From: Mesostigma viride
Lineage: Eukaryota > Streptophyta > Mesostigmatophyceae > Mesostigmatales > Mesostigmataceae
Direction of reading: 5' to 3'
Assembly: GCA_009746045.1 (NCBI GenBank)
Contig: RPFO01000165.1
Span: 2,147,521 to 2,211,520, forward strand
Length of the DNA: 64,000 nucleotides
Position numbers and translations under genes: made by a program. Positions 15,452 to 54,686 of the stretch are shown here, in pieces. Each line of letters begins with the position of its first letter. Position 1 is the stretch's first letter. The notes under the pieces are model-generated. The model worked only from the letters and a program-made list of their open reading frames with translations, ran no database searches and was not told the DNA's origin.

Positions 15452-15554
15452 GCAGAAGCCAGGCGGCAGTTCAGCCGCCTCCTGAGTTGCGTTGGCAGCG
15501 GATCCAGCAGGTGCGTTGCGTCCCTTGTTCTGGTTCCCTCGGTTGCCGCCCTTG

Positions 15555-22767: not shown

Positions 22768-22768
22768 T

Positions 22769-24270: not shown

Positions 24271-24887
24271 AGTTAACGTAAAGGATTTACGTTAGATGGA
24301 TAGAGATTGTTACGCTCTTTCCAACGGCACCTTGAACGCCTCATTTGGTTAAGGAACGTAAAAGTTATGACGTTTCCTAGGCTGTGCCGACAGTACCCGG
24401 CGCGCCACTGTGGGCGCGTACGGACACAGGATGTACAAGTGTCACTTTGATAGTCCGCAGGACGTTGACAGGACTTGTACAGGACTTGATGGTCAATTGA
24501 TAGGTAGGCGCACTGTAGCGCGCCAGGACCTATGAGACAATTGATGCTGAGTAGTGTACGGATAGGTCCACAGGACTAGCCGTATGGACAATTGATAGAT
24601 CTGCGCGCCAAAGGCGTGCCAGAGTCTGTGTAATCAATTGATTGACAGTTCAGCTGTGACAGTGCAGCTGAATACTTGGACGCGTCCCTAGCAAGCTATA
24701 TGAGTGACTTGGTCACACCGGGACGCTAGTTCTTGCGTGCACGTTCTCTTGGCACTGCGACCCTGTCGTCTGTGCTGCGTGCAGTCTTGGAAGTGACGTG
24801 ACTTACGTCTGTGTTTCCTGATTATTAATAAAGGCAACTTCCTGCAAGAACCATGGCGGAATTCGTGGCATTCTTACCCTCACAACT
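24271..24887 (+). repeat. 5' LTR of element B
   Basis: The 617-bp direct repeat opens AGTTAACGTAAAGG and closes TACCCTCACAACT. An ATTAATAAAGG near 24825 may serve 3'-end formation. The partner is 31478-32094. Confidence 0.93.
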
Positions 24888-25622: not shown

Positions 25623-25790
25623 TCGGCCTAATTTTCTTTGCAGTACTCGTCGACATTTTTTTGTCGAATTTTCAGCGGCAATTCGCGGGGCGGCAGCGAC
25701 ACCGGCGCAGGCGGCAGTGGCGACACAAAAATTTTGTACATATTTTCTGCTGCTTTGTTAAGGTGTTCTTTGAATAGCTGGTAGTGCAGG

Positions 25791-26905
25791 ATGGCTGAGG
25801 GACGCCGTAGCAAGGGTCCAGCCAGTGGGAATAATAATGGGGGTGCTGGTAGTGGAACCGCTCACGTAGATGACGTGGGGCTTACCGGAGAGATTACCAA
25901 CCTTCCTCACAATAATAATAATGCACAAGCTATTCATGGCTTTGATCTTACCACACAGGGTCTTTTAATTGTCAATCAGTTGCAGCCTGTAACCTCAGAC
26001 TCCAAGCCTAAGCAGGCTGAAGAGTTTGTGGAGGGATTGGAAGGGTTCCCTAGCTTGTACGGTGGTACAAATTACTATCAAATCTGGATAGGCAGTAGCA
26101 CTTTTGGCAAGTGTACTGACCAGATTAAGGACCTAACCAGGGAGTGCAAAAAGGCCAATAAGGCCTGGGCACTGTACGTGGCTGAGCTGAAGGAGCTGCT
26201 GGAGACCAACGAAAGAAGGTCGGCATCCATTGGCAGGACAAGTACCAAGGGTGGGAGGTCAAGGGGGACCTGATCCAGAACTTTCTCAACTATTGTAAGA
26301 TGGTTGAGGAGGGCAGGGCTCACGGCTTTAATGTCGCTGATAACATAGCCCTAACCAACTGGCTCAAGGTTTCTGGGCTGGATAAGGCGACACGTGGCTC
26401 CTTAAAAGTCATGTGTGCCCCACACTCTACCCTGAAGGCCTACAAGGTCATCATTAAACAAGCTCTCGAGGCAGAGGAGCTGTTTGAGGGTGGAGTGCCA
26501 GCAGTGAAGGCTACCCAGGCAGGCGGGCGTACCCAGGGTGGCTCCAAGACGTCTGAGGCTGACCGAAGCCAAGGAGGGCGTAGGGGCAACCATCACAAGC
26601 GCAAGGGAGATCATTCACCTGATTCTGACAGGAGGTCACACTCCAAGTCGGTGTTCAGGCGGGTGGGTGGTCAGCCCAAGCAGGGCAACGCGTCTGACAA
26701 TGGGGGCAGTGGCCAGGGCAAGTCCAAGATACAATGCTACCTGTGCAAGGGGTGGGGGCACATCAAGAAGGAGTGTCCCAGCTTCAAGAAGTCCCAGGGC
26801 CAGGGCAGCAACAAGAATAACAACAACAACAAGAAGAACAACAACAAGTCCCAGGCAGGCCAGCCTTCAAAGGGCAGTCAGCAAGAAGACAACAAGGAGC
26901 AGTGA
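25791..26905 (+). pseudogene. Gag of element B (one frameshift)
   Basis: The first frame (25791-26273) covers the N-terminal and capsid parts. The second (26300-26905) continues with MVEEGRAHGFNVADN and ends in a zinc knuckle CYLCKGWGHIKKEC and an Asn/Lys-rich tail. The shift falls near 26212-26220 and would be closed by one more A in GAAAGAAGG. The segment WEVKGDL...GRAHGFNV aligns by eye with FEIKGTV...GAKHGFNL of element D gag, so the two gags are homologous. Confidence 0.85.
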
Positions 26906-27046: not shown

Positions 27047-28651
27047 ATGAAGACGTCCTTGACAGCTGATGCAGCTGTAAGAATGTCTGACCCTATGCAT
27101 CCTCGTGCTGGGCACGAGGGTGGACCTCTCATTTTGAGAGAAACCAATGTACAACCACAGAGGGGTGTGAAGGCCTCTGGTGGTATGCATGTGGTCCCTG
27201 CTGGCGGTCCAGGTGTTGGGCATGAGCAGGGTGACTCAGGCTCTGAGTCAGAACAGGATGGAAGTCAGCATGGTGATGCTGGACAACCTGACAGCACAGT
27301 CCTGACTGTGCCAGGGACTGCTTCCTCTGTGTACCAGGAGTTGGGTGCCCGAATCCACAACATGTTTGGGCATGCCACTTCTCTGTCAAACAACTTTGCC
27401 TTCCGTATGGGCAGGGCACCCCTTCTTAAGGCGTGTCAGCAAGCTGCCTCACGGTGTAAGTGCCAGTTGTCCTCCAACAAGCCCAGGAAATCACATGCCA
27501 AAGCTCTACCTCAGAGCATTGGTGATCTGCAGTGTGATATCCAACACATCAGGGGCATGCAACTGTTGGTGTGCGTGGACAGGTACACGAAATACAAGGT
27601 GCTGGAGCATTTACCTTCTATGAAGAACAGGTACTTGCTGGCTGCCCTGCAGAATGTAAGAGCCAAGTTTCCTACCACAAGGATCCAGGTGGACATGCAG
27701 TTTCAGCATCTCAAGGGTGATCCTACCCTTCCTGAGTTGCTGGTTACACCTAGGGAGGCTCATGGGCAGCAGGGTGCTATCGAGAGGGCAATCCAGGAGG
27801 TCAAGAAATTGATCATCTCTGAAGACTGGGTACCCTTGTCTGCACCTGCACTTGTCAGGAGTGCATGGCTGAGGAACGTGGAGCAGCAGCTGAACAGCAG
27901 GGTTAACTTCTACTATGATGGAGTTGCTGTCAGCCCAATGGGTCTATATCATGGCCTGTGCCCACCACATGTGCTGGAGGGCTGGAAACATGCTGCACAT
28001 GTCACCTTTGCCAAGCTGAGGGAGAAGGACCGGGGTTGGAAGATGCTGGAGCCACAAGTGGGTCAGAAGGTCCTAGCTTGGAAGGAACCTAGCCTTTATG
28101 GCAAACGTGGTAGCTGGAGTCCTGGGGTGGTTACCCAGGTTGATGAAGCTAGCCACGCATGCTTGGTCAGCATGGAGGACGAACCAAAGCATGTACACCG
28201 GCTGAGTTGGTCATATGTCAAGCCTAACCTGATGAATGAGGGCAGTCAGGCACAAGGCTCACAGGATCTGCAGGATTTTCAGGTCCCAGGTGACATCACT
28301 GACGCAACGACCACATCTGTTGCAGGGGAATCTGTCAGCCCTGGCCAGGTTGCAGAGGTACTTGTTGAACAGGCTGCAAGGTCAACAGCTGGGGAGTCAA
28401 CTGTCAAGCCCAAGGCACTAACCAAGCCCAGGGGGACAAGTTTGGCTGGATTGATTGGGGCTCTACAAAGGGCCAAGAAGCAGCCCAAGGTAGCCAAGCT
28501 CAGGTGGCATGGCAATCTGGGGCTGGACACTGCCTTAGAGGTAGACACTAATTCTCAGGTTCCATCATTGGGACCAGGGCTGCAGCAGGGTACAGCATGT
28601 CTGAACCCAGCTATCAGTTTGTGTCTGACTTCAGTGGCGGGGTACACGTGA
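27047..28651 (+). CDS. Integrase and start of protease, element B
   Basis: The 534-residue frame has an HHCC-type zinc finger (RIHNMFGHA...CKCQ) and an integrase core. The core's triad is Asp at 27536 (LQCDIQHI), Asp at 27692 (RIQVDMQF) and Glu at 27782 (GAIERAIQEV). An SH3-like C-terminal part follows, WKEPSLYGKRGSWSPGVV to HRLSWSYVKP. The protease opens after the integrase at LEVDTNSQV. A one-base loss at about 28560 (GTTCC for GTTTCC) then throws it out of frame. Gag ends in a stop 141 nt upstream, in contrast to element C, where gag and integrase share a frame. Confidence 0.88.
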   Translation: MKTSLTADAAVRMSDPMHPRAGHEGGPLILRETNVQPQRGVKASGGMHVVPAGGPGVGHEQGDSGSESEQDGSQHGDAGQPDSTVLTVPGTASSVYQELGARIHNMFGHATSLSNNFAFRMGRAPLLKACQQAASRCKCQLSSNKPRKSHAKALPQSIGDLQCDIQHIRGMQLLVCVDRYTKYKVLEHLPSMKNRYLLAALQNVRAKFPTTRIQVDMQFQHLKGDPTLPELLVTPREAHGQQGAIERAIQEVKKLIISEDWVPLSAPALVRSAWLRNVEQQLNSRVNFYYDGVAVSPMGLYHGLCPPHVLEGWKHAAHVTFAKLREKDRGWKMLEPQVGQKVLAWKEPSLYGKRGSWSPGVVTQVDEASHACLVSMEDEPKHVHRLSWSYVKPNLMNEGSQAQGSQDLQDFQVPGDITDATTTSVAGESVSPGQVAEVLVEQAARSTAGESTVKPKALTKPRGTSLAGLIGALQRAKKQPKVAKLRWHGNLGLDTALEVDTNSQVPSLGPGLQQGTACLNPAISLCLTSVAGYT

Positions 28652-28768
28652 AGGTACTGGGTGAGGTATTCATTCCTATCCTTGGACAGGACACTGCTTT
28701 TTGTGTCTTGGAGGGCTATCAAGGACCTGCTCTTCTGGGGCAGAATTTCCTATGCCAGGATGGGTAGT
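28535..28768 (+). pseudogene. Retropepsin-like protease domain of element B
   Basis: EVDTNSQV is followed, in the shifted frame, by SDFSGGVHVKVLGEVFIPIL and PALLGQNFL, the flap and ILG parts of a retropepsin. It lies downstream of the integrase and upstream of RT. The active-site Gly of DTG is replaced by Asn, as in element D. A second one-base loss near 28766 separates it from the RT frame. Confidence 0.8.
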
Positions 28769-30528
28769 GATCACGTCCTCTCTCCTGACTAAGGAAGGGG
28801 CTGGTCAGGTCCCACTGATTAATTTCAGGACCACTCACCTATCACGTGCAGTAACCAGGACGGTTAAGCGTGTGCAAGTGTGCCAGGGGCAGGAGCCCTT
28901 GGTTGATGACCTCATACTGCCAGCTGCTAGTCATCCAAGCAGTTTGGGCATTGGTCCTCACTCACTTGCTGGACACAGCCCTATCAACTACCAAGGCCTG
29001 GTGAAGCTCATGTCCTCTCCCATTATGTGTCCCCAGGTCACACTGGGTCTGATTAAATCTGGGGAGGACTGGATCTCCAAGAAATGCGTGGAACCTGTCA
29101 ATGACCTGCCTCCTGCACGACGTCTACTCAAGCTCAAGTTTGTCATCAAGATGAAGGAGGTGGACGGGGTCAAGGTACCACATGTCAGGCCAGTGCTGAA
29201 TGAGTTCAAGGGTACTGGTGAGTGCACTGCTGAGGAGTTGTATACCCCTGGCATGCTGCATGATACTTGGAGGCTGCTGCTGTGTGTCTTTCTAGGCCTT
29301 CTCAACAAGGGCTTGGACTATGGCTCAGTGGTGATAGACTTCAAGAGGGCATTTCTGGAGGGTGATGCAGATGTGGCACAGGAAAAGTGGGAGGGCAAGA
29401 CGCCTTTCTATGTTAGGGTGCCTGCTGTATGGAAAAGGGACATCCACACGGAGTTCCTTAAAATCCTCAAGGGCCTGGAGGGCCTGAGGTCAAGTCCAAT
29501 AATCTGGAGGGAGACTCTCAACCGTTTCCTGAAGGAGCATTGCAACTTGAAGGTCTCTCCTGTAGACCCCTGTCTGTTTCTGGGGCAATGGGAAGGCCTG
29601 CCAGTGTATGCTTCGCTGCACGGGGATGACCTACATCTGATAGCTCCCACGTCGTGGCTTAAGGAGCTGATCTCCATCATTAAGTCCAAGTTTCCTCTGG
29701 GTAGGGAGCAATGGCAGGTGGAGAATGAGCCTCTGCTGTTTGTGGGCATGGAGGCCACACTGGTGAAGAAGGGGGGAGTGGCGTATGCTGCTGGTGGGGG
29801 GCAATGACTATCAAGAGACCCTCATTAGCAAGCTTCCTCCAACCATCACACAGGCACTGTGTCCCATGGTGAGGGGCATGGTTGCTTGGGTGGCAGGCAT
29901 TTCCAGGCCAGACCTTATGGTCATAGCCAGGTTGCCTGATGACATGCTGGTGGAGCTAGGGTCTGCCAAGGTGGCTGATCAGGTCAGGGCTTCATCTGGC
30001 ATTCTGTTGTCTGCAGTGGATTTATCACAACCCATTTGCATGGAGCTGTATGTGGATAGCTCAATGGACAGCAGGCAGGTCTCCAAGGTCAGGGGCAGGG
30101 CTGCAGGGCTCTTTGTGCTCAGACAGGAAGGCCTGGGGAGTTTGGTGAGCTGGTTTAGTCGCCTGCACAAACGGGTGGCTGTCAGCAGTGATGTGGCAGA
30201 ATGCAGGGCTATTTGTGAAGGCATTCACACAAGCCTTTATCTGAAGGAGTTGCTTCATCAGATGACTTCTAACACTCCTTGGCCACTTCAGGTTACCACT
30301 CTTCTAAAAACAGACTCCATGGGGATGGTGCAGTTTGTGCACAGGCAGATGGCCAGAAGTAGGGACTTGGATTATCTCCTTCTTAAGGAGTTGTCCTCCT
30401 TGGCCAATATTGAGCATATCCCTGGGGTTGACAATCCTGCTGATGCTTTGACCAAGCTAGTGCAGAAGGCAGCAGTGCAATACAAGGTTCTTCAGTCTCT
30501 GATGGACCCATCTCAGCAAGCTGTCTAA
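28769..30528 (+). pseudogene. RT and RNase H of element B
   Basis: RT motifs appear as KFVIKMKEVDG, ELYTPGMLHDTWRLL, VVIDFKRAFLEGDAD, EGLRSSPIIWRETL and the catalytic HGDDLHLI, in a frame reaching 29807. After a run of six G near 29770 the frame changes, with one extra G needed, to 29785-30528. That frame holds RNase H: LYVDSSMDSRQV, AECRAICEGIHTSL, LLKTDSMGMVQFV and GVDNPADALTKL. The fold is copia-like, but the polymerase motif HGDD replaces YVDD. Confidence 0.87.
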
Positions 30529-31477: not shown

Positions 31478-32094
31478 AGTTAACGTAAAGGATTTACGTT
31501 AGATGGATAGAGATTGTTACGCTCTTTCCAACGGCACCTTGAACGCCTCATTTGGTTAAGGAACGTAAAAGTTATGACGTTTCCTAGGCTGTGCCGACAG
31601 TACCCGGCGCGCCACTGTGGGCGCGTACGGACACAGGATGTACAAGTGTCACTTTGATAGTCCGCAGGACGTTGACAGGACTTGTACAGGACTTGATGGT
31701 CAATTGATAGGTAGGCGCACTGTAGCGCGCCAGGACCTATGAGACAATTGATGCTGAGTAGTGTACGGATAGGTCCACAGGACTAGCCGTATGGACAATT
31801 GATAGATCTGCGCGCCAAAGGCGTGCCAGAGTCTGTGTAATCAATTGATTGATAGTTCAGCTGTGACAGTGCAGCTGAATACTTGGACGCGTCCCTAGCA
31901 AGCTATATGAGTGACTTGGTCACACCGGGACGCTAGTTCTTGCGTGCACGTTCTCTTGGCACTGCGACCCTGTCGCCTGTGCTGCGTGCAGTCTTGGAAG
32001 TGACGTGACTTACGTCTGTGTTTCCTGATTATTAATAAAGGCAACTTCCTGCAAGAACCATGGCGGAATTCGTGGCATTCTTACCCTCACAACT
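31478..32094 (+). repeat. 3' LTR of element B
   Basis: The 617-bp direct repeat shows two substitutions against the 5' copy (in the GATTGANAGTTC and TGTCGNCTGTG segments). Confidence 0.93.
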
Positions 32095-34433: not shown

Positions 34434-34914
34434 GCCACCACCGGCTTGTGTTATTGCACATCATGTTTATTTGACAGTGACAACATGTTTATGGCACTAT
34501 AACATATGTAAAACATCATGCAAGCCATGCAAGGGTTGACATACCAATTTCCCTGTTTTTGGCTGCTCGTAGTCATCTGCCAATATGAACGTGATATAAG
34601 CATTATAATGCAATTCTGAGTGCACCCCCCCCAGTTGGGGACCTTTGGACTACCTGTCTACACTATCCAGCCATGCATTTGTGGTTCAGAACCATCCTAA
34701 AGATTTGAGGTGGGGGTTAACTTTTTCTTGCGCGAAAAAGTTCGTCTTTTGTCCAACTTTGACAGTAAATATCTTGCAAACCGCTTTATGGACTCAGGAT
34801 ATTATTGCGTATTCTGAAAGCCCTTGAAGTGTAGATGTTCCTAGCACCTGGGTTGAGGGTAAATTTGGAGTTGTGGTCTGTGAGTTATGATTTTTTTATT
34901 TTCAGGGGTCTGGA
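34434..34914 (+). other. 3' non-coding end of the piggyBac element
   Basis: No gene is present. From about 34640 it matches the right end of the intronic MITE (3777-4079), including TTTTCTTGCGCGAAAAAG versus TTTTCCTTGAGGAAAAAA stem-loops. Confidence 0.7.
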
Positions 34915-35569
34915 GTTGGCATATTGGGGCACCAATGTGCTAGATGGATGCAGGTTGAGGAGACCTTTCTAACGCCGTGTCAACCGCCTAGAACAGACAA
35001 GGGACTAGAAAGATATCAGGTCCCGAAGTACTGCCGACCGGCGGGCGAGGGCGGTGCACTCTCAGGGCATAGTGGACAGGACACGTGGCAGGCCGTGCCT
35101 GCACAGGCTTAGCCTGAACTCTCACGTGACTGGGACACAGTGTACTGAGGGCTCAACGGTCCTGTGGCTAGTAGTAGCCAGCCAGCAGGTCTGCAAGGAT
35201 GTAAGTCCATGCAGGACAGTTGTGGCAGGTCCTGTGCTGTCCTAGACACAGGATAGCCAGAGATTCCTGTATGCTGCCTGCAACAAGGATGCAGGGCAGC
35301 GATACGAGGCTCTGGCAAGGTAGCGTTGCACAGCGTTGCTCATGACCGAGGAACAAGGATGGAACGAGGTTGCATATAGCTCGAGGCTCAACGAGGCAAC
35401 GAGCGTCTTCACACACGAACCTTGGTCGTCACGACGAGTGGCGAGCCTATCGAGGGTCGTAGGCCTGGTGTGAGGATAAAGGTTGCTAGCCAGCAGCCTA
35501 GGGTCATTCCAGCCGGCAAGGAGGTCCCAGGAGCTCGAACAAGCTCTGCTGACGAGTTGCTGCGCAAAT
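34915..35569 (+). repeat. 5' LTR of element D
   Basis: The repeat opens AGTTGGCATATTGG and closes TGCTGCGCAAAT. The partner is 53462-54118. Confidence 0.9.
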
Positions 35570-35594: not shown

Positions 35595-38500
35595 ATGTCT
35601 GGTTCATCGTCAAGCAGCCACGGTGCTGGTGAGGCGAACGAGCAGAGAGACGCGCAAGCGTTTTTCCCCTACCGTAACCAAGCAAACGCTCCAACATTCG
35701 TGCAAGCGGCCTACGTAGCGAGGCACTTGGCAGAAGAGGGGTGGGTAGTTAAAGCCCGACCGGCTCAGCTATGGCGGTCGGTCACGTTGAGCTTGGGATA
35801 AGGTGAACACAGAGAACTGCTGTCGGAGCTGGCCCACCACTGGTTTATGTCTTAGCCAGCAAACCCTATCCGGTTAGCCGTAACCGTGGGACAAGCTAGC
35901 CGTCCGTACTGACCCGGATGAGGCCCCGGACTGGGGCCTAGGTGGCGCCGGCCCTAGGCGCCGCCCTTAGACCGGTCGCCCGCATCGGACCGCCGGATTA
36001 TAGCCGGCGGCTGAGCGGACGCTAGCGGAAGGCGTGCGGACGGACATGGGGAACTCAGAGCCAGATCCTAGGGCTCTAGAGTTACTCAACTCCGACATAC
36101 TCTTTTGTTCTTTGATTAATTATCAAAATAATTACATCAAATGCAGACCATACAAAACCCTCTAAGGTAGGGAACTCAAGGGGGCCTCAAGGCCGTCAAA
36201 ATCACCACGGTATCGACCCGCGCCCTTGTGATCACACATGAATAGTGATGTAATAAGTATCGAGAAAAAAACAACTATGCCACCAGACAAAAGGTGACCC
36301 ATTTATTAGGACCAGTGACCCGCCGACGGGCCCAAGGCACCGTCCAACGTGGCTAGGGTATGGTCAGGACAAGCAAAAAAAACTACCACCATGATATTCG
36401 TGAATGCTAGCAACACAGGGTGAGTTATGGCTGTATTCATAAAGCGCCCGAGCCGTAACCCTGTGTGGCTCACGGGTGTTGCATCGTCATGCGCTTGCGC
36501 AACACTGCGTACTGCGGGGCAGCCTCCCGCGCCTCCTTGGTGAGTGCATCCGCGGGATTGAGTTCATCCGCGATGTGCTGGAGACGCGTGACGCAGGAGG
36601 CCGCCTCAGCGAGTACGAGGTAATCAACGTCCTGTGACCGCGCATAGGGATTGTCAAGGAAGGCCAAACAACTTTGTGAGTCAGTGTGCACCGTGCTAGT
36701 CCAGTGAAGAGTGAACCCACACGAGCCAAATACCCAACCCAGCAAGTACCGCAGCCACATGCCATGTGAGATAGCTGAAACAATGCCCCGGCATTCAGCC
36801 GTGTTGGGGCTAGTGGCAATGCGGCTGTGCAAGCGCGAGTACCAATCTAACAACATGCCAGGCTGTCCCTCATTGCTAATAAAGAACAGTGCCCCCATGC
36901 GGGCCCGCACTTGGCTGACTGTGCGCGTCTCTAGATTAGCATCCGTCACTATCTCGAGGTGCACCGGCTGTGAGCAATCGAGCCCACGAAGCACAATGCC
37001 GGGCGTCATGGCCAGCTGCCGCCGAACATGAATGGACCCTAGTCCTTCCAGCACATCATCGGGCAGGCGAGCGAGCACCGCCAAATCAGGTGCCACCGTG
37101 TCCGCCAACCACCCGAGCTTGCCCTTAACCGAGGGCCCATGGGTTGCCAACAGCGGGGACGGGAGGTCGGCCAGCAGGTCAACCACATAGTTGCGGCTAT
37201 CCTGCATGTGCATGACCCATTCGCCAGAACGCGAATCCCGCTGCAACGTAGACTGCACGCCGCAAAACACCACGGGTTTACCCTCCTCATGATCCACCGC
37301 CCTGCCCAGGGGAAACTTAGCCGCCACTGCAGCAAGAAACTGGGTAGCAAAGGTGCGAGGTGCCACCAGCTTGAAGTCATCGCCATGCCACACGAAGAGG
37401 GCTGGCTCGCCAGGGACGCCGGTGGGGACCACAAAGAAGTTAGGATCCGCGCGATGGTACGTGGCCCCTAAGCTCTGCAAGACCTCCTCCGCGGAAATGC
37501 GGAAGATGATGGGAGAGCTCTGCAGCCCCTCCACCCCTGTCAACAGCTCGATATACTCGCTGCCAATGGTGCCATCCTGCCAGACCACCGGGACCTTCAC
37601 CACGTAGCGGGTGCCTTGCCATGTTTGCTGCGCGACCCCAGCGTCGCTGTGGAGGAATGCCCGCTGAAAGTCACCGCACCACATCCCGTAGTCCTTGCCC
37701 GCGTTCCGCTTGCCCAAGTAGATGACCGTCAGTAGCCGATGCGAAACATGGTTGAGCCCAGGGGTATAAAGATCCTTGGCGTCCAGCGGGGAGGACCCCT
37801 TCGTCTCCGTGACCACGGGCCTTACCCGGAACACCACCGAAGAGTTGGTCTCGTCCGGCTTGTAGGTGAGCACGAACTTCAACCGCAACCGCGTGGCCCC
37901 GGCTGGCACACTCTCCAATCCTCGGTAGACCTCGCGCTCTCGCCACTGCTCCTTGGCTCGAATGAACGCGTCGCGCCACAAAGCAAACTTGAGAGGATCT
38001 TGACAGTCCAGGACAAGTTGCTCCCACGTCACAGGGCTATCCGCCGCCAGTGAGTGTGAGTGGAGGCCGAAGCTGCGCGGGTGCCAATCCTGAGGCTGAA
38101 TGATGGACTGGACGAGCGGCGGTGTGGAAAACGCCGCCATCGGTAAGCGCCGCACGACGCCGGGCTGCCCGACCACCACCCCCAATGGAGCGTGGTACTC
38201 GCGAAGCGGGATGCTGCCCACCCCCGCGACTGACAGCAAGTCAGCGGACACTGAGAACCCCGGGTATGATACGAAAGGTTCGCCCAGCAAGGCCACATCC
38301 TCGTAGCCATCCACGACGTGAAACGGCGTGTCAATGCCCAACACCGGCAGCACCACCATCCCGGTAACTTGATATGCCGAAGTGCCTGCAAAGTCGGTCA
38401 CCGATTTGTACGGCGACTCTAGCACTGGATACAGGGTGGCTGCCCGACGAGAGATAATAGACACGGATGCTTGCGTGTCCACAGCCACCAGCTGCCACGG

Positions 38501-41500
38501 TCTACACGTAGGAAACAAGGCTGACTTAACCGGCCTGACCCCCTGTGAGAGAGTTTTGACCTGAGCCACCCCTGATGCAGCTTTCGCTTTAAGCGCCTGA
38601 GCACGCCACAAGGCCGTGACCGTTGAAGCCAGGTCCCTAGGTGGGCGAGGCGCATGGGCAGGACCCTGACCCTCCGGCGAGGCCACGCTAGGCGGGCCTC
38701 CCACATTATCCGTGGCTAGCACAGGAGGTGAGTCACTACGTGCACTAGGTCCCGTCAAACCCACCCCATCCTCATCCCACCCATCCACGGGGTCATATTG
38801 GGGCCCAGGGGAGGGGGGGGTGTAGCTGTGTCTGCCCCTGGGAGCGACCCGTGGGGTACCACCTCAGATGCTACGACAGGCGCATTATCCTTCACTACCC
38901 ACCCCAGTGCCCTGTTGGCTGCCAGCTCACTCTCCATGCTATCCCCTTGCTTATAGCCTGCCACCGATGCCCATGGTACCCTATACACCCGATCATTCCA
39001 CTCTATGTCTATGACCCGCAGCGGCCAGTCTAACTTTGTGATGGCCCCAGGCCCCTGCATGGTGCCCCGTTTGCCGCTGGGCGAGCTCTCCTTGTGGAAC
39101 ATGACCAACTGCCCGACCTCAAAAGCGCTAGACAAATCAGGCAGCGTGGCATCCTTGAGCCGCAGCTTGGCGGCGGTATCCTGTAGATGCTGTTGGTATG
39201 CCTCTACTACCTCGGGTGAGTAGGTGCCCGCTGACAGCCCCCGAGGCGTGACTAGCCCAAAGCCCTTGACATCAAGCACGTGCCTATGGTTGCACACATG
39301 CATGAGCTCCTTGCACCACGCCGTCTTGACCGCGTAGGATTTGCCATGTGGGTTATCCTGTCGCTTGGCTGCCACAGTCTTGACATAGCTTACAGTGCGA
39401 TCTATCATGCCCATATTGCCGTGATCCTCACGCCCCACGATGACCACGGCCTCCATCCCCGGCAAACCTTGCACACAGCGGAACTGCTGGTCTAGCATGA
39501 GCTCCACTACGGGATGAAAGAAAGCCAGGCTGATCTTGATAGCCCTGTGCAGGTCAGCCTCAAACATGTGAGGCAGCGGCTCAATGTAGGTGGCCTTGCT
39601 GAACCTATCCTTGACTATGAAATAGGTGTCCCCCCTTCCATGTGCATGACATCCCCCACAAGGTACCCTCGCTCCAAGGGTGGAGTCTTGGCATGCCGCC
39701 TACGCGACTTCTTCCTGATCTTGATGCAGGCAGGACACTGAGCACGCACATTCTTCAGCTCGTTGTATAAAGGTGCCCCCAACATGTGTGCCCCCTCTAC
39801 CTCGGCTTGGGCCTCATGCCCGTATGCACGGTGCATCTGGTATGCTAACAGTTTCAGGGTGACAGCCTGAGGTGCAGTGGCATTGTCAGGATTCTCAACA
39901 GGTGGGGTGACTACTGGGGTAGTGACATTGGCTAACTGGGCAGCTTCAGAGGCTGCACGAAAGGCCGCCCGTGTGAGCACCTTGCCAATGTGAAGATCCA
40001 CACTAGGGTGGTGTGTACCGAGAACATCTGCCCGCCCAGCATTCTCTTGCACTGTCACAACATTCCTCATAGGCCCAACCGCCCCAGTATCTAGCTGGGG
40101 TGCTGCAGTAGTGCTTGGTCGCTCGGCGTTGTACACACCCGACCTAGAAGACACCACATTGCTTAGGTCACGCATTGTAGACCCGTGCTCAGGAAGCACG
40201 TGATCCTGGCGCGACAGAGCCAGAGCAGCATCAACGGATTGCGTGAGCACATCACGGAATGAGACAGAGGATGCAGTCACGTTGCTTTTAGGAACGACGT
40301 CAGGCTCTACGACGGCCCGGTTCAGCGTGACGCATTGAGCAAAAGAAGGGGTATCGAGCGTGCTCTCACCTGACTTTCGTGCTGCCCGTCGCTCTGCCCA
40401 CTCCTCGCGTGTGCCGTGGACGACGATGCGCTTGGCCTTGCACGCCTCCACGCTGTGACCACGCAGAACGTCGTGGCACTTGCGGCAAAGGTTGTCCTCG
40501 AGCTCCAGGTCCGGGCGAACTCGGCAGTCATCCCGGACATGGCGACGTCCGAAGCAGCGCTCACAGCGTTGCTTGCGGTCAGTAGACGCCCCCTGCTGCC
40601 GCTTGGCCGGGGGATGATCACCCTGCTTGGCGTCGCCACCATGCCCGCGCTTGCGCCCTCGCTGGCCCCCGTTGTTGCCGTGGCCGACGACCTTTTTCAG
40701 GATGGCCGTAAGCTCCGACCGCGTAATTGGAGCCTCTGCGCCTGAAGAAGAAGACGCGCCGGCATCCACCTTGCGCAGGGATGGCAGAGCAGCCGAGGCA
40801 GCCGGCTTGGACTGCGCACTCTTGAAGCATGAGATCAAATACAGCATGCCCTCGTCGAAACTGACAGCACTCTTCTTTTTGAGTTCCGTCGCTATGGTCA
40901 GATGCACATCCGACGACAGGTCGCATTTCTTGAGAAATCGATTGCACAGGAAAATGGGCTTGAGAGTATCTAGCAGCTTGTGCTTGTGCACGAAGACCTG
41001 GAAATCACGTGCAGCCCCGGGCAAATTTGCCTTATTAACTGCATAGCCCTCGAAGTCGTTGAAGGCTTGCTCGTCGGCCTCTTCCTTAGACCGCGACAAG
41101 TGGGCATCTAGACCGTTGTAAAAAACTTCCCAGGTTTGTTTGTTGTCGTCCGCAATGCGAACTAGATTGGCAATGTTTGGGTGCTTTGTTGTACTGCAGA
41201 ATACTGCACGGAACTTGCCAATCAGCTCCGAATCTTTGTCTGCGCGTCCATCGCGCAGACGCTTGAGAGCAGCTAGAAAATCTGCTGCGTCGTCCGCCGT
41301 ATAGTCGGCAGGTAGATCCGCGGGCACCTCCGTTTGCTTGAGAGGGCCGCGATTCAGTGCATCGTCAGCAGCAAGCATCAGATGCTTGAACTGCTTGGCC
41401 AGTTCAGGTTGCGCCACGAGGGTTTGCATCAACCTCGTGGCCTCGTCCGCACTAAAGCGTGGCAGGACGGTCCCTGCGGCCTCGCCACTTGGCGTATCTG

Positions 41501-42891
41501 TGTGTTCGCCCGTGCGGCTCCGTGTACCGGAAGCCATCGGGATTTTTATGAATACAAGTTAAAGCCCGACCGGCTCAGCTATGGCGGTCGGTCACGTTGA
41601 GCTTGGGATAAGGTGAACACAGAGAACTGCTGTCGGAGCTGGCCCACCACTGGTTTATGTCTTAGCCAGCAAACCCTATCCGGTTAGCCGTAACCGTGGG
41701 ACAAGCTAGCCGTCCGTACTGACCCGGATAAGGCCCCGGACTGGGGCCTAGGTGGCGCCGGCCCTAGGCGCCGCCCTTAGACCGGTCGCCCGCATCGGAC
41801 CGCCGGATTATAGCCGGCGGCTGAGCGGACGCTAGCGGAAGGCGTGCGGACGGACATCGGGAACTCAGAGCCAGATCCTAGGGCTCTAGAGTTACTCAAC
41901 TTGGGTGGCGGTGAGTGGGGGAGGCAACAGGCCAGCGGCGGCGGACCCGATTATACAGCGGGCTCGTGTCGTGATTTCTCCGGGTGAGACAGGGCGAGTG
42001 GCGGTGGAGGAGTTGGTGCGCATTCGTGACGCGCTAGCTGAAACTGCTAATCGTGTGGAGGTCGCCTACCAGGGCGCCCATATCACGCTAGCCGGTCTCG
42101 ACCTAGCCAGGGAGGCGCTTAGCCAGGTCGTGGCGACAGCGCTCGGCAGCACCAGACTGTTCAACCACTGGGTGGCGACAGCAGTGCTAGGAGAGGGGGT
42201 ACCAGACGCCGACATCATCCGGAACGCCCGAGCTCGCGAGGCGGTGAATCCTTGGAGCACGGCGGAGGTATTTGCTCAGACCATTGAGAATCTTGTTGCT
42301 GTCCTTTTGCAAGAGTCGAGAGGGTACGCAGACAGGTTCTATATTACCACGCAGCCTTTCGGAGTGTACTCCAGGCTTGATACACCAAGGCCGGAAACCA
42401 CCACTGCGTGGGGTCCGGAGGTGGAGATTGTCACGGGTGTCGAGAAGACGCCTGAGGACGTCCATTTTGAGTGGACAGACAAGCCAGAGGGCTCCGTCAA
42501 GCGCTCAGCCCAGCAGATAAACGAGGGCGACGGCACTACAGAAACCTACGAGGAGAGGCAGAGGGCAGATCTGCACATCCCTCGTGAGGTGACTCACGAG
42601 TACGACCGTTACGGCCGAGGCGAGCAAAACGAGCTTGTCGGAGGCGGTAAGCGGTGGGTACGCGATCTTGCTTGGCATCGCAACCCAGGTGAGGAACAAC
42701 ACCCAGTCGAACGCAAGGCAGACGGGCGACCTGTGACCTGCGTGCTGGGAGAGTTTAACCCAGACCTCCAGATTGTCGCAGCGGCAGCAGCAGCCACATC
42801 GGTTGCTGAGGGTGTTGAGCAGCGTCCAGACCGTGAGGAGGGGCAGGCGAGTGCAAGCCAGGAGGCGGCCTCGTCTGGAGTAAGTGCGTGA
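35595..42891 (+). CDS. ORF0 of element D, split by element C
   Basis: The ATG at 35595 opens a frame that enters the left TGGGT duplication. It resumes without a shift at 41902, so removing element C and one TGGGT leaves an ORF of 378 codons ending at 42891. I do not recognise the product. It starts Ser-rich, then has helical segments (VEELVRIRDALAETANRVEV, LARLALSQVV-like, VFAQTIENLVAVLLQE) and a charged C-terminal half. It sits between the 5' LTR and gag, as ORF0 of element B does. That the frame is still open despite the age of the LTRs hints that the protein was kept under selection until insertion. Confidence 0.7.
35747..36091 (-). repeat. 3' LTR of element C
   Basis: The 345-bp repeat begins AGTTAAAGCCCGACC and ends GTTACTCAACT on the plus strand. 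It contains GGCGCCGGCCCTAGGCGCC, a GC-rich inverted repeat. Confidence 0.95.
36092..36469 (-). other. 3' non-coding region of element C
   Basis: It lies between the pol stop and the 3' LTR. An A-rich purine stretch (minus strand CAAAGAACAAAAGAG) lies next to the LTR and may be the polypurine tract. Nothing else is recognised. Confidence 0.4.
36470..38788 (-). CDS. Protease, RT and RNase H of element C
   Basis: The 772-residue frame starts with a Pro-rich linker. A retropepsin domain follows: VAVDTQASVSII with Asp about 104, then VLPVLGIDTPFHVV and ALLGEPF at 166-172. RT shows LRLKFVLTYK, YTPGLNHVSHRLLTVIYLG, CGDFQRAFLHSDAG with Asp 373, EGLQSSPIIF and HGDDFKLVAP at 468-477. RNase H shows IVTDANLETRT, AECRGIVSAI, VHTDSQSCLAF and LNPADALTKEA. 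The protease thus lies just before RT and after integrase. The frame joins the integrase frame across a run of eight C (coding strand, 38813-38820) if one C is added. There is no internal stop. Confidence 0.92.
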   Translation of the reverse strand: MDGWDEDGVGLTGPSARSDSPPVLATDNVGGPPSVASPEGQGPAHAPRPPRDLASTVTALWRAQALKAKAASGVAQVKTLSQGVRPVKSALFPTCRPWQLVAVDTQASVSIISRRAATLYPVLESPYKSVTDFAGTSAYQVTGMVVLPVLGIDTPFHVVDGYEDVALLGEPFVSYPGFSVSADLLSVAGVGSIPLREYHAPLGVVVGQPGVVRRLPMAAFSTPPLVQSIIQPQDWHPRSFGLHSHSLAADSPVTWEQLVLDCQDPLKFALWRDAFIRAKEQWREREVYRGLESVPAGATRLRLKFVLTYKPDETNSSVVFRVRPVVTETKGSSPLDAKDLYTPGLNHVSHRLLTVIYLGKRNAGKDYGMWCGDFQRAFLHSDAGVAQQTWQGTRYVVKVPVVWQDGTIGSEYIELLTGVEGLQSSPIIFRISAEEVLQSLGATYHRADPNFFVVPTGVPGEPALFVWHGDDFKLVAPRTFATQFLAAVAAKFPLGRAVDHEEGKPVVFCGVQSTLQRDSRSGEWVMHMQDSRNYVVDLLADLPSPLLATHGPSVKGKLGWLADTVAPDLAVLARLPDDVLEGLGSIHVRRQLAMTPGIVLRGLDCSQPVHLEIVTDANLETRTVSQVRARMGALFFISNEGQPGMLLDWYSRLHSRIATSPNTAECRGIVSAISHGMWLRYLLGWVFGSCGFTLHWTSTVHTDSQSCLAFLDNPYARSQDVDYLVLAEAASCVTRLQHIADELNPADALTKEAREAAPQYAVLRKRMTMQHP
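38813..39640 (-). CDS. Integrase core and C-terminal domain of element C
   Basis: After TYFIVKDRFSKATY the frame reads VVIVGREDHGNMGMIDRTVS, carrying the likely second Asp region and the region of the catalytic Glu. Here the expected Glu position reads MIDRTV, so the catalytic acid may be Asp or lie nearby. An SH3-like part follows: KESSPSGKRGTMQGPGAI to VYRVPWASVAGYK. The first Asp is in the preceding frame (VGDVMHME). The two frames join across a run of six G (39630-39635) if one G is added. Confidence 0.75.
39615..41537 (-). CDS. Gag and start of integrase of element C
   Basis: The 640-residue frame starts 20 nt after the 5' LTR. It has a helical capsid-like region, then two zinc knuckles, CERCFGRRHVRDDC and CRKCHDVLRGHSVEAC. 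A long Ser/Thr-rich spacer follows, then the HHCC finger of the integrase (MHRAYGHEA...CPACIK) and the first catalytic Asp in GDVMHME. No full protease lies between the knuckles and the integrase finger. A lone LDTGAVG there is followed by too short a stretch to be a retropepsin. Confidence 0.87.
   Translation of the reverse strand: MASGTRSRTGEHTDTPSGEAAGTVLPRFSADEATRLMQTLVAQPELAKQFKHLMLAADDALNRGPLKQTEVPADLPADYTADDAADFLAALKRLRDGRADKDSELIGKFRAVFCSTTKHPNIANLVRIADDNKQTWEVFYNGLDAHLSRSKEEADEQAFNDFEGYAVNKANLPGAARDFQVFVHKHKLLDTLKPIFLCNRFLKKCDLSSDVHLTIATELKKKSAVSFDEGMLYLISCFKSAQSKPAASAALPSLRKVDAGASSSSGAEAPITRSELTAILKKVVGHGNNGGQRGRKRGHGGDAKQGDHPPAKRQQGASTDRKQRCERCFGRRHVRDDCRVRPDLELEDNLCRKCHDVLRGHSVEACKAKRIVVHGTREEWAERRAARKSGESTLDTPSFAQCVTLNRAVVEPDVVPKSNVTASSVSFRDVLTQSVDAALALSRQDHVLPEHGSTMRDLSNVVSSRSGVYNAERPSTTAAPQLDTGAVGPMRNVVTVQENAGRADVLGTHHPSVDLHIGKVLTRAAFRAASEAAQLANVTTPVVTPPVENPDNATAPQAVTLKLLAYQMHRAYGHEAQAEVEGAHMLGAPLYNELKNVRAQCPACIKIRKKSRRRHAKTPPLERGYLVGDVMHMEGGTPIS
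41557..41901 (-). repeat. 5' LTR of element C
   Basis: The 345-bp partner of 35747-36091 differs by GATAAGG for GATGAGG and CATCGGG for CATGGGG. Confidence 0.95.
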
Positions 42892-47224: not shown

Positions 47225-47538
47225 CCCTCGTGAAACGTAGAATGGTAACCAGGGTGGCAAGGGCCAGCAGCAGGGATCCAAAGGCAAGGGTCAGCAGCAG
47301 GCTGGAGGTCACCAGGGCGGTCAGCAGAATTAGGGTGGCCAAGGGCAAGGCAAGAGCCAGCTAGGGCCAGGGCACCCAGGCCAGTCAGAGCAGCCAGAAC
47401 CAGGGTGGCCTGAAGAAGGCTGCTGCTGGGAAGGATGACAAGTGCTTTGGATGTGGCAGGACGGGTCATTGGCGACGTGACTGCCCAGACCAGGCCAAGT
47501 CTGTTGGAGCAGGCTCTGGCCAGGTGGGTAAGCCATGA
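47225..47538 (+). pseudogene. Gag of element D, C-terminal part with zinc knuckle
   Basis: A Gln/Gly/Lys-rich stretch is followed by CFGCGRTGHWRRDC, a retroviral-type zinc knuckle, and ends at TGA 47536-47538. At least one frame irregularity occurs in the low-complexity part. Confidence 0.7.
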
Positions 47539-48250
47539 CTTGATGTGTTGTCCCCTGTAAATAGTCAATCACCCCTAGTGGGACGAACAGTTGTACATAT
47601 AGTAATGGGGGTGTCCCTCTTGTGCAGCAGCAAGGGGTTGGGAATGATGAGGTGCTTCCACTCAATGATTGCAATAACGCTGCTGCAGCAGTGGAATTCC
47701 CTGTGCCTGTGGCAGGTGCAGGGTCTCCAGTTGTTGGGGTTGACTCTGGGAGTCAAGCCGCCAGACTGGAAGGACCTGCAGCTTCTGTGGGAACCGGGGC
47801 TGGCTCTGGGAGCCGAGCTACCTTGGAGGAGGTCCCTGGAGCAAGAGAACAGCAGGTGGGTTGAGCTATCCCAAGCACACAGTCTTTGTCACGTTCCTCT
47901 CTGTGCAGCCAGGCTGACAGGGGTTGAGCTACAAGGGTTGGAAAATGCTGAGGCCCCAGGTGGGACTGAGGGTCAGGATGTGGAAGGAACCGTCATTACC
48001 AGGCAAGCGTGGCAAGTGGCAAGATGGGCAGGTAACCCATGTTGAAGAGGCTAACCATTCTTGTCTGGTGGCTTTGGAGAGTAATCCCAAGCACGTGTAC
48101 AGGCTATCCTGGGCTCACGTCAAGGAGAGGAGGCCAACTGCAATCTGGCCTGAAGACGGCCCTGATCCTCCCTTGGAGGGAGATGAGCAGGAAGAGAGCC
48201 AGGCAGTAGATGCTAACCCACCATGCTTGGATGATGGTCTGTCCTCCAGA
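47539..48250 (+). pseudogene. Integrase remnant of element D, catalytic core deleted
   Basis: Only the C-terminal SH3-like part is recognisable, WKEPSLPGKRGKWQDGQV to YRLSWAHVKER, matching elements B and C. The HHCC finger and catalytic core seen in B between gag and this part are absent. The copy could not integrate by itself. Confidence 0.75.
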
Positions 48251-49265
48251 TGGATGAGGGTGAGCAGGAGTCTGCTGAGACGTCTGTCACAAGGCCACAG
48301 GTGGCCAGGGCTGCACCACAGTCCAGGGGGCTGCTGATGGCGGACATCATTCGAGCTCTGCAGAACAGCAAGCGTGATCCCAAGGTATCTAAGCTCACGG
48401 GATGGGGGTCATGTGGGGCACCAGCACTAGAGGTGGATACCAACTCACAGGTGTCCATTCTAAGGGTAGAGGATGCTGCAGGCTTGCAGTGGTCATCCCC
48501 TAGCTGCCTAGCTGTGTCTGATTTCTCTGGGAATGTGTCCATGAAGATCTTGGGAGAAGTGAGTGTGCCTATCCTGGGGGTGCCCACCACGTTCAGTGTG
48601 GTTGAAGGGTATCAGGGGCCTGCCATTCTAGGTCAGAGCTTCTTGTGCTTGCCAGGGGTGAGGATATCCTCTGAGGAACTAGCATTAGAGGGGCAGGGCC
48701 GCCTTCCCTTGCAGAGATATCGCTACTCCCAGGGTCTTAGTGTGGCTGTAAGGGCTGTGAGGGGTCTAGAGGCAGAGGGTCCTGATACAAAGGAGCCCAT
48801 TGCTGGGTACCTGCTGATCCTCCCTACTACGTTTGACCCACGTGATCAGTTGGGTGTGCAGCGGTACCAGATCCCAGGAACGAGTCATGTACCTTGGCGC
48901 AAGCTAGTGGAGATGATGCAAAGCCCCAAGATGGCTAAGGCATGGACTCTTGGCTTTGTTGCTTCTGGGCATGAGTGGATAGTTGCCAACTGTGCAGAGC
49001 CTGTAGATGTCCTCCCTGAGGATCACCAGCTGCTCAGGTTGATGTTTGTCCTCAAGCTCAAGGAGGTGGATGGCGTGCAGGTGCCACATGTTAGACCAGT
49101 TGTGACTGAGTACCATGGCACTGGACAGTTAGCAGATGAGGAGCTTTACACACCAGGGATGCTGCATGATACATGGAGGATTTTGTTGTGCATTTACTTG
49201 TCTTTTCTGCAGAAGGGGATACCCTATAGCTCTGTGTTGGTAGATTTCAAGAGGGCTTTTCTTAA
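48250..49265 (+). CDS. Protease and first part of RT, element D
   Basis: The frame holds a whole retropepsin domain: ALEVDTNSQVSIL, VSDFSGNVSMKILGEVSVPI and PAILGQSFLCLPGV. RT then starts, with RLMFVLKLKEVDG, ELYTPGMLHDTWRIL and VLVDFKRAFL. It is cut inside the RAFL motif by a TTAA element. As in B and C, the protease directly precedes RT. Confidence 0.88.
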
Positions 49266-51347: not shown

Positions 51348-51351
51348 TTAA

Positions 51352-52524
51352 GGGTGATCAGCAGGAAGCACAGGATACTTGGCGCACAATACCCCCTTTC
51401 TTTGTTAAAAGGTGCCTGCAGTGTGGAGGGCAGAGCTGAAGACGAGGTATTTGAGGATTCTCAAAGGCGTGGAAGGCCTTAGATCGAGTCCCATCATCTG
51501 GAGGAAGAGCTTGGAGAAGTACCTCAGGTCTGTCTGTGGTCTCTCAGTCTCTCCAGTTGATCCTTGTCTGTTTCAGGGTAGCTATGAGGGGCTGCCAGCG
51601 TTTGCCTCCCTGCATGGTGATGATCTGCATCTCCTGGGCCATCCCACTTGGCAAGAGTTGACTCTGGCCAGGATCCAGAAACGGTTTGAACTGGGTAAGA
51701 TCCAGTACATGGTTGAGAATGAGCCCATGGTGTTTTGTGGAATGCAGGCGACCTTGGTCCATCAGCAGGGTACATGGTCCATCCAGCTGGAGGGTGGTAA
51801 GGATTATCCTCAGCAGATCATAGATGCCTTGCAGGAGCCCATCACCCAGGCCAGATGTGCAACAATACGAGGTATGTTGGCATGGCTGGCCAGCATTTGT
51901 GCTCCTGACCTGTTGGTACTGAGTCGGTTGACCGATTCCCAACTGGTTGAGGTGGGTGCTGAGAGAGTGGTAGAGGCTGTTCGCATGTCTCCCCCTCTCA
52001 TGCTGGGTCCTTTGGATTTGTACAGGCCTTTTGACATGATGCTCTATGTGGACAGTTCTATGGATAGTAGGAAGGTCACAGAGGTCAGGGGCCGTGCAGC
52101 AGCATTAATATCCCTGGTGCAGGAACAGTCCTCTCTGGTCTGCTGGTACAGTCGGTTGCAAAACAGGGTAACTCCCAGCAGTGACATTGCTGAGTGCAGG
52201 GCAATCTGTGAAGGGCTTCATACTGCTCTTTACTTGAGGGAGCTATTTTACCAGCTATGTCAAGTGGCTTCCTGTCGGTTGCAGATGCACACACTGGTAA
52301 GAACTGACAGCATGGGCATGGTGCAGTTTGTGCACAGGCAGCTGGCCAGGAGCAGGGACCTTGATTATTTGTTGCTCAAGGAAATGTCTTGCTTAGCTAA
52401 CATTGAACATGTGGCTGGCGTGGACAACCCTGCAGATGCTCTCACCAAGCTGGAGGAGAAGGCTGAGCTGCAATACCCTTTGCTTCGTGGGCTCATGGCC
52501 TCCAAGGGGGGAGGGCCAGAGTAG
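51352..52524 (+). CDS. Rest of RT and RNase H, element D
   Basis: After a short shifted stretch the frame from about 51412 reads VEGLRSSPIIWRKSL and the catalytic HGDDLHLLG. RNase H follows: LYVDSSMDSRKV, AECRAICEGLHTAL, RTDSMGMVQFV and GVDNPADALTKL. It is uninterrupted from 51412 to the stop. One base is missing or added near 51408. Confidence 0.87.
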
Positions 52525-53461: not shown

Positions 53462-54118
53462 AGTTAGCATATTGGGGCACCAATGTGCTAGATGGATGCA
53501 GGTTGAGGAGACCTTTCCAACGCCGTGTCAACCGCCTAGAACAGACAAGGGACTAGAAAGTTATCAAGTCCCGAAGTACTGCCGACCGGTGGGCGAGGGC
53601 GGTGCAACTCAGGGCATAGTGGACAGGACACGTGGCAGGCCGTGCCTGCACAGGCTTAGCCTGAACTCTCACGTGACTGGGACACAGTGTACTGAGGGCT
53701 CAACGGTCCTGTGGCTAGTAGAAGCCAGTAGCCAGCCAGCAGGTCTGCAAGGATGTATGTAAGTCCTTGCAGGACTGAGGCAGGTCCTGTGCTGTCCTAG
53801 ACACAGGATAGCCAGAGATTCCTGTATGCTGCCTGCAACAAGGATGCAGGGCAGCGATACGAGGCTCTGGCAAGGTAGCGTTGCACAGCGTTGCTCATGA
53901 CCGAGGAACAAGGATGGAACGAGGTTGCATATAGCTCGAGGCTCAACGAGGCAACGAGCGTCTTCACACACGAACCTTGGTCGTCACGACGAGTGGCGAG
54001 CCTATCGAGGGTCGTAGGCCTGGTGTGAGGATAAAGGTTGCTAGCCAGCAGCCTAGGGTCATTCCAGCCGGCAAGGACCAGGAGCTCACAAGCTCTGCTG
54101 ACGAGTTGCTGCGCAAAT
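53462..54118 (+). repeat. 3' LTR of element D
   Basis: The repeat opens AGTTAGCATATTGG. It shows more than ten differences from the left copy, including small indels near 53606, 53722, 53757 and 54076. A purine tract ACAAGAAAGGG precedes it. Confidence 0.9.
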
Positions 54119-54149: not shown

Positions 54150-54686
54150 GAAAGAGATCTGACTGAAATTTTTTTAAAACAGTACGAGCAAAATTTGACT
54201 TGGAGGAGCGGAGCGTAGTACGATGCTTACTGGACGAAGTTTTCGAGATTCTGTAGCGATTCTGGACTGATCAGCGCTGATAGAATCTGAATTTGGGTGA
54301 AATCATAAGTGCTACGAAAATTTGCCCTGAACGCATGCTAAACGTGGCCTGAAATCGTTTTCGGTTGTGCGGTCACTAGTTTCGAGCAATAAAAACGAAT
54401 CCAAGCCGAGTTCAGGCCGATTTTTTGTAGTTCCGAGGAATAAAAATTAGTTTGGAAGATTTCCCCGTGAGGGACGGAGCGTGGGATCGACGGTGCGGCG
54501 GGCCGTCGCGAGCGCGCGCGATGGGAAGCCCCCAAAGGAAGGCCGCCGAGCGTTCGCCCCCCGGCGTAGTGGCCGGCCCGGTAGGCGGGCGCTCCGCCCG
54601 GCGGCCCGAAACTTTCGGCGGAGGCCTCAGGGCCCCTGGTGGCGTAGTGCGTCCGAATAAGTGGGGGGGCTTGGCCCCCCCACCTT
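54150..54686. repeat. Unit 4 of the array, right part
   Basis: It continues 23633-24225 after the nested insertion, starting GAAAGAGATCTGACTG as in unit 3 at 21689. Confidence 0.85.

What the first reader, a model, noticed from the sequence alone, without database searches (positions are those of the whole stretch)
36470..41537. LTR retrotransposon lineage with the protease between integrase and reverse transcriptase
Element C reads gag with two zinc knuckles, HHCC integrase, SH3-like domain, retropepsin, copia-like RT, RNase H. Elements B (27047-30528) and D (47924-52524) show the same order independently. Known copia elements are PR-IN-RT-RH, and gypsy and BEL elements have the protease first. 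No complete protease lies upstream of the integrase in B or C. Three separate copies make a chance rearrangement unlikely. To my knowledge this order is not one of the described LTR classes.
Basis: partly seen in the sequence, partly recalled or inferred. Interest (0 to 1): 0.88.

Follow-up and report, generated by a model that had tools for sequence, protein, structure and literature searches.

The report
Algal retrotransposons with relocated protease domain
A group of recently active jumping elements in the green alga Mesostigma viride encodes its enzymes in an unusual order, with a protease-like domain between the integrase and the reverse transcriptase.

Summary
The window is from Mesostigma viride. 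Element C is a complete LTR retrotransposon (35747-41901, minus strand; target duplication TGGGT; LTRs 343 of 345 identical). The order integrase, retropepsin-like domain, copia-like RT, RNase H was read in full in C (two frames) and in D (L053), Mv25522, Mv26004 and a foreign ENA protein; in B across frameshifts; in families E and F in part. In D and Mv25522 it is one open frame. The window's own D copy lacks the integrase core. Evidence for a protease is moderate: PF13975 matches 4 of 7 members (best E 0.00086), and 0 of 200, 0 of 300 and 0 of 200 column shuffles reach the profile score against gypsy proteases; but reverse HMMER failed and structure prediction was off. The DTG glycine is Q, N or M in all eight sequences. 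No protease was found upstream, though one of those scans had little power. B and C LTRs end AGTT..AACT; B, D and Mv25522 have gag-UGA-pol in one frame. Ten literature searches listed nothing with this order. New variant of a known kind; activity untested.

The parts
41557..41901 (-). element C, 5' LTR (345 bp; AGTT..AACT)
   Evidence: 343 of 345 identical to the 3' LTR; TSD TGGGT on both sides
35747..36091 (-). element C, 3' LTR
39630..41537 (-). element C, gag with two CCHC-type motifs, linker and HHCC (HHCC about 39630-39884)
   Evidence: CCHC motifs read by eye (Pfam gave no significant match)
38788..39633 (-). element C, integrase core (D, D, D) and SH3-like end
38195..38497 (-). element C, retropepsin-like domain (DTQASVS .. 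LLGEPF)
   Evidence: (PF13975 E 0.16)
37256..37891 (-). element C, reverse transcriptase (HGDD box; limits approximate)
36473..36961 (-). element C, RNase H (limits approximate)
24271..24887 (+). element B, 5' LTR (AGTT..AACT)
   Evidence: 615 of 617 identical; TSD CTAAC
31478..32094 (+). element B, 3' LTR
25785..26905 (+). element B, gag (broken frames) ending in TGA followed by C, in frame with pol
   Evidence: (zf-CCHC E 0.0016)
27272..28237 (+). element B, HHCC, integrase core (D, D, E) and SH3-like end
   Evidence: (rve E 0.016)
28538..28764 (+). element B, retropepsin-like domain in two frames
29100..30504 (+). element B, RT and RNase H in two frames (start approximate)
   Evidence: (RVT_2 E 6.1e-7)
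34914..35569 (+). element D, 5' LTR (AGTT..AAAT)
   Evidence: 98.76% identical in aligned letters; TSD TCTGG
53462..54118 (+). element D, 3' LTR
47536..47538 (+). element D, UGA (followed by C) between gag and pol
47873..48124 (+). element D, remaining end of the integrase
48412..48720 (+). element D, retropepsin-like domain (DTNSQVS .. ILGQSF)
51409..52524 (+). element D, later part of RT and RNase H (earlier RT part ends near 49272)
11912..15592 (-). element A, ordinary copia pol used as control (protease region before integrase)
   Evidence: LTRs 11065-11809 and 16442-17186, TSD GATCC, 745 of 745 identical

Best explanation
C, B and D belong to a lineage of LTR retrotransposons in Mesostigma viride whose Pol runs integrase - retropepsin-like protease - reverse transcriptase - RNase H. 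Shown: the order, in several families; near-identical recent copies; 5-bp target duplications; a copia-type RT-RH. Inferred: Gag-Pol is made by reading through an in-frame UGA after gag (B, D and Mv25522 families) or by a change of frame at the integrase/protease border (C family); the protease domain dimerises in the particle and cuts itself out between integrase and RT, freeing Gag, integrase and RT-RH; the cDNA is then integrated by DDE chemistry (third residue D in the C and Mv25522 families). Also inferred: an ancestor lost the copia protease before the integrase and gained, or moved, a retropepsin to a place after it.
For: One-frame order: L053 (1197 aa; 22 of 110 listed matches of the D family have a 1197-aa open frame by my count) and Mv25522 (1249-aa frame in 13 of 71 listed matches by my count; sequence). 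P0005 and P0006 hold the order in one protein (P0006 is a gene model); in P0005 Pfam puts rve at 214-265, PF13975 at 557-628, RVT_2 at 751-923 (E 0.15, 0.086, 0.014). Family E: 38 of 38 listed matches are open 1196-aa frames colinear with P0005 at 63-64%. Family F: integrase E, DTQAQVS and RT start in one stretch. Protease: PF13975 in 4 of 7 members, best 0.00086 over positions 14-91 of 92; hhalign scores 29.6, 28.6 and 22.7 against ten gypsy-type proteases of the same genome, reached by 0 of 200, 0 of 300 and 0 of 200 column shuffles; of 33 windows before/over the integrase and 51 after it the five best all overlap this domain. Conservation 49% in the main part of the domain (29% in the window with DT) against 12-17% in the linker before it. 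RT-RH matches copia element A, probability 97.5, E 6.9e-12. Recency: 57 of 57 listed C-family matches are 100% identical in PR-RT-RH (a capped best-first list).
Against: No structure. No significant PDB match for protease or integrase. Reverse HMMER search did not separate gypsy proteases from shuffled decoys. The platform's hhalign gave only probability 9.8, E 0.0033, and the score fell as families were added. 3 of 7 protease members have no aspartyl-protease match in Pfam. G of DTG is absent in all eight sequences. Used singly, 4 of 5 protease pieces score no better than gag pieces (10.9-14.3 against up to 16.8), so that scan cannot exclude a diverged upstream protease. Integrase against element A's integrase: 38 of 100 shuffles reach the score. 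No unusual RNA structure after the UGA codons or the C run. RT tree unresolved.
Confidence: 0.8

Rival explanations
1. The domain has a retropepsin fold but is dead or structural, and processing is done by a host or trans-acting protease or does not occur.
For: G of DTG is replaced by Q, N or M in all eight sequences.
Against: D-T, V-S after it and the second-motif G are invariant in the seven aligned members although these are only 30-53% identical to C; the main part of the domain is as conserved as RT; element A, with identical LTRs, has DSAAS in place of DSG, so that position is not fixed.
Confidence: 0.15
2. The DT[QNM] domain is not a retropepsin; the true protease lies upstream, too diverged to see, so the order is ordinary copia.
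For: Only weak matches; reverse HMMER negative; no PDB match; single-sequence scans of gag frames have little power.
Against: PF13975 is the only family hit by more than one member (4 of 7) and is hit by none of the gag, 5' or gag-integrase frames scanned; profile scan peaks at this domain only; shuffles never reach the score.
Confidence: 0.05
3. Chance rearrangement, nested insertion or assembly chimera in this window.
For: C is nested in D, and the B and D copies here are broken.
Against: Perfect 5-bp duplications around A, B, C and D; the order recurs in open-frame copies on many contigs and in a protein from outside this assembly.
Confidence: 0.01

Closest known systems
Ty1/copia (Pseudoviridae)
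   Same: Integrase before RT-RH; RVT_2 is the only RT family clearly hit; RT-RH aligns with copia element A; 5-bp target duplications; CCHC gag.
   Different: Protease-like domain after, not before, the integrase; HGDD (HADD in P0006) instead of the FVHVDD/YVDD type; LTRs of B and C end AGTT..AACT; DT[QNM]; no Pol_BBD or SH3_retrovirus match.
Ty3/gypsy, BEL and Retroviridae
   Same: The protease-like domain resembles gypsy-type proteases (PF13975); protease directly before RT.
   Different: There the integrase comes after RNase H (passages of PMC12440569 and PMC8742986); here it comes before the protease. RT is of RVT_2 type.
Gmr1-type gypsy elements
   Same: A known change of the integrase position in Pol (passage of PMC2774666).
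   Different: Gmr1 is gypsy with a copia-like integrase position; order with protease after integrase is not described for it in the passages seen.
Troyka
   Same: A lineage with non-TG..CA LTR ends, proposed as a superfamily (abstract and passages of PMC12440569).
   Different: Animals only, 3-bp TSD, CG..CG ends, gypsy order.

Membership tests
Ty1/copia (Pseudoviridae) | Pol order PR-IN-RT-RH | tested here: not met
   IN-PR-RT-RH in full in five sequences, with frameshifts in B, in part in E and F
Ty1/copia (Pseudoviridae) | RVT_2-type reverse transcriptase | tested here: met
   below Pfam's cut-off throughout: B 6.1e-7, F (P0003) 6.9e-6, P0006 0.00031, D 0.0022, P0005 0.014; none for C or Mv25522; RT-RH aligns with element A
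Ty1/copia (Pseudoviridae) | 5-bp target duplication | tested here: met
   B, C and D, 3 of 3
Ty1/copia (Pseudoviridae) | TG..CA LTR ends | tested here: not met
   AGTT..AACT in B and C, AGTT..AAAT in D; element A has TG..CA
Ty1/copia (Pseudoviridae) | primer binding site for initiator tRNA-Met | not tested
   sequence next to the 5' LTR looked at only by eye
retropepsin (aspartyl protease of LTR elements) | profile similarity to known members | tested here: met
   PF13975 in 4 of 7, sub-threshold; hhalign above all shuffles, but weak and negative in reverse HMMER
retropepsin (aspartyl protease of LTR elements) | D-T/S-G active-site triad | tested here: not met
   D and T kept, G replaced by Q, N or M in 8 of 8
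retropepsin (aspartyl protease of LTR elements) | fold, dimer and activity | not testable with these tools
   structure prediction switched off
retroviral-type integrase | HHCC and D, D, E | tested here: met
   HHCC and the first two D invariant in 6 of 6; third residue E in B, D, P0005, P0006 and F, but D in C and Mv25522; rve in 4 of 6, best 0.0059
Ty3/gypsy, BEL | order PR-RT-RH-IN | tested here: not met
   integrase precedes protease and RT

The most novel reading that the evidence does not exclude
A superfamily-level branch of LTR retroelements that lost the copia protease and gained a gypsy-like retropepsin between integrase and RT, uses a DT[QNM] active site and, in part, a DDD integrase on AGTT..AACT ends, separates Gag-integrase from protease-RT by a frame change in one family, and also exists outside Mesostigma (host of P0005 unknown).
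Probability: 0.4. Interest if true: 0.87.

Novelty: new variant of a known kind. Interest (0 to 1): 0.76.

Why it matters
The order of Pol domains is a main character by which LTR retroelements are classified. A conserved, recently active lineage with the protease after the integrase would show that the protease can be moved or replaced, would make protease capture testable, and offers natural DT[QNM] retropepsin-like domains and a DDD integrase for enzymology. Pfam hardly detects these elements (C and Mv25522 Pol: no match), so they may be overlooked in other algae.

Tried and rejected
Second host: P0003 and P0004, labelled Prorocentrum lima, were first taken as dinoflagellate relatives. P0003 is identical to 117 of 134 listed Mesostigma matches by my count and P0004 matches C at 119 of 126 residues, differing only at its start; contamination is the simple reading. 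P0005 is kept as foreign: best match in this assembly 63-64%.

Upstream protease: a DTGA string in C before the integrase was considered a relic; the window holding it scores 10.2, noise level. Gag and 5' frames score at most 16.8, below the highest shuffle (17.8), but this single-sequence scan has little power, since 4 of 5 protease pieces tested alone score 10.9-14.3 (C 23.1).

Negative or unhelpful: integrase against element A; PDB searches; reverse HMMER; NCBIfam, 0 of 7; protease against element A's protease, uninformative, as the gypsy profile also fails there; RNA folds at recoding sites; RT tree; collection scans; scan with A1 not run. The B-family genome search did not complete. Assembly error at the C run is not excluded (PacBio plus Illumina polishing; PMC6947507 passages).

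Full report
Source. The window is C1912:2147521-2211520 of a 440-Mb assembly; the closest named proteins are Mesostigma viride gene models. M. viride is a streptophyte. A published M. viride assembly of 442 Mb reports LTR elements as 27.9% (PMC6947507, passages).

Anatomy. Element C: LTRs 35747-36091 and 41557-41901 (343 of 345 identical), TGGGT on both sides; in element sense the LTR runs AGTT..AACT. C lies inside element D (LTRs 34914-35569 and 53462-54118, TSD TCTGG), which is further interrupted at 49273-51408. Element B: LTRs 24271-24887 and 31478-32094, TSD CTAAC, AGTT..AACT. Element A (LTRs 745 of 745 identical, TSD GATCC, TG..CA) is an ordinary copia: Pol_BBD 75-151, rve 257-356, SH3 417-484, RVT_2 747-987.

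Order. In C, gag-to-integrase and protease-RT-RH lie in two frames that overlap by 106 nt in 20 of 20 copies looked at; these were taken from 57 listed matches, all 100% identical in PR-RT-RH, so they are a selected set. In 2 of the 20 gag and integrase form one 934-aa frame. Other families need no change of frame inside Pol. D copy L053 has a gag frame (359 aa, zf-CCHC 2e-5), one TGA, then a 1197-aa frame with HHCC, D-D-E core, SH3-like part, DTNSQVS domain, RT and RNase H. Mv25522 (P0002; L029-L038) has a 1249-aa frame with the same order, preceded in frame by gag and one TGA. P0006 (gene model Mv26004) and P0005 (ENA contig of 6224 bp) have the order in one protein. Family E matches P0005 at 63-64% in 38 of 38 listed matches, all open 1196-aa frames (37 over 12-1213, one over 38-1213); I read 187 aa of one, from the protease to the start of RT. 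For family F (P0003) I read 466 aa from the integrase E through the protease to the start of RT, not its HHCC part. B has the order across frameshifts.

Is it a protease? The piece of C alone gave PF13975 (gag-asp_proteas) at E 0.16 as its best of 24,736 Pfam families; 1 of 3 members matched then. With more members: 3 of 5, 4 of 7, best P0005 at 0.00086 over model positions 14-91 of 92, with PF13650 at 0.047; no other family is hit by more than one member. All are below Pfam's cut-off. Against ten gypsy-type proteases of the same genome (L054-L063, ten of 150 listed matches to PF13975) hhalign scored 29.6 with four families, 28.6 with six and 22.7 with eight; column shuffles reached these in 0 of 200, 0 of 300 and 0 of 200 (highest 17.8). 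The platform's own comparison gave E 0.0033, probability 9.8. A scan with C, Mv25522 and D: 33 windows before and over the integrase peak at 11.4; of 51 windows after it, the five best (25.6-27.5) overlap this domain and the sixth has 15.6. Against: the lineage profile in HMMER did not separate real gypsy proteases from shuffled ones; PDB matches were not significant, though two of the five listed chains are named 'protease, tethered dimer' (E 0.99 and 1.4); no structure could be predicted. D-T, the following V-S and the second-motif G are invariant in seven aligned members. G of DTG is Q (C, F, P0006), M (Mv25522) or N (D, E, P0005, and B by reading). Mean pairwise identity is 49% in the main part of the domain and 29% in the 40-column window that starts with DT, against 12-17% in the linker before it.

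Upstream. Gag, 5' and gag-integrase frames of B, C, D and Mv25522 have no aspartyl-protease match in Pfam. They score at most 16.8 in a single-sequence profile scan, but 4 of 5 protease pieces tested singly score only 10.9-14.3 there, so that scan has little power.

Integrase and RT. HHCC and the first two D are invariant in six families; the third residue is E in B, D, P0005, P0006 and F and D in C and Mv25522. rve matches 4 of 6, best 0.0059. Comparison with element A's integrase was not significant. The SH3-like naming of the last part rests on position, the GKRG-containing pattern and a non-significant match to PHF1 (E 1.2). RT-RH of four families aligns with element A over 433 columns, probability 97.5, E 6.9e-12; the RT box is HGDD, HADD in P0006. 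The tree with one copia reference was unresolved.

Making Pol. In B, D (two copies) and Mv25522, four sites, gag and pol share a frame with one UGA between, each followed by C. UGA-C as a leaky context is recalled; no unusual RNA structure follows. Read-through is an inference. In C the border between the two frames holds a run of C; the pattern occurs 244 times in the genome, and of the 100 places listed 88 have the window's length and 12 are longer, by my count. A transcript-derived protein, P0004, reads across the border. Programmed shifting, mixed populations of copies and assembly error are all open.

Spread. P0003 and P0004 are most simply Mesostigma sequences in a Prorocentrum lima data set. 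Scans of viral contigs and prokaryote genome contigs found no relative. The three protein searches scored only the 8000 best candidates each, so absence elsewhere is not shown.

What is known. Ten full-text searches listed no title or abstract start that describes this order; lists were capped. I saw passages of PMC2774666, PMC2836005, PMC6947507, PMC7027972, PMC8742986 and PMC8515867, and abstract, introduction and passages of PMC12440569. A sentence in PMC8742986 places the integrase of Pseudoviridae 'upstream of the protease domain'. Taken literally it would make this order the copia order; the Pseudoviridae profile lists protease, integrase, RT-RH, and element A shows that order, so I take the sentence as a slip for RT. 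Repbase and GyDB could not be searched.

Verdict. The element works like a copia-type LTR retrotransposon but does not meet copia's order and LTR ends, so I file it as a new variant, not as a copia member. Protease activity is unproved.

Noticed in passing
window 38788-39633 and L031:199-1134: Third catalytic integrase residue is D instead of E in the C and Mv25522 families; 29 to 31 residues lie between the second and third catalytic residue in B, C and D (my count), against about 35 usually (recalled).
   Followed up: partly
window 26903-26905, 47536-47538; L053:2459-2461; L064:1798-1800: gag and pol in one frame separated by a single UGA followed by C, in three families.
   Followed up: partly
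proteins P0003 and P0004: Public protein sets labelled Prorocentrum lima contain Mesostigma retrotransposon proteins, probably cross-contamination.
   Followed up: partly
window 21815-22768 and 22995-23216: Large inverted repeats without spacer (477-nt and 111-nt arms, 100% complementary) in a zone of direct repeats (18229-24225) that recur near 54167-54977; real palindromes or assembly artefacts.
   Followed up: no
window 32396-33958, plus strand: DDE_Tnp_1_7 transposase (E 5.1e-37), piggyBac type by recall, just after the 3' LTR of element B.
   Followed up: partly
window 41890-42891 and L053:1-903: D carries a 5' frame of about 300 aa before gag without a clear family match; C is inserted in it here.
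   Followed up: partly
window 10637-11170, minus strand: Weak zf-RVT match (E 0.021), perhaps a non-LTR retrotransposon remnant beside element A.
   Followed up: no
window 11912-15592, minus strand: Copia element A has DSAAS where DSG would be expected, with LTRs 745 of 745 identical.
   Followed up: no
window 58711-59149 and 62998-63436: Direct repeat pair of about 430 nt, 4.3 kb apart, possibly another repeat element.
   Followed up: no
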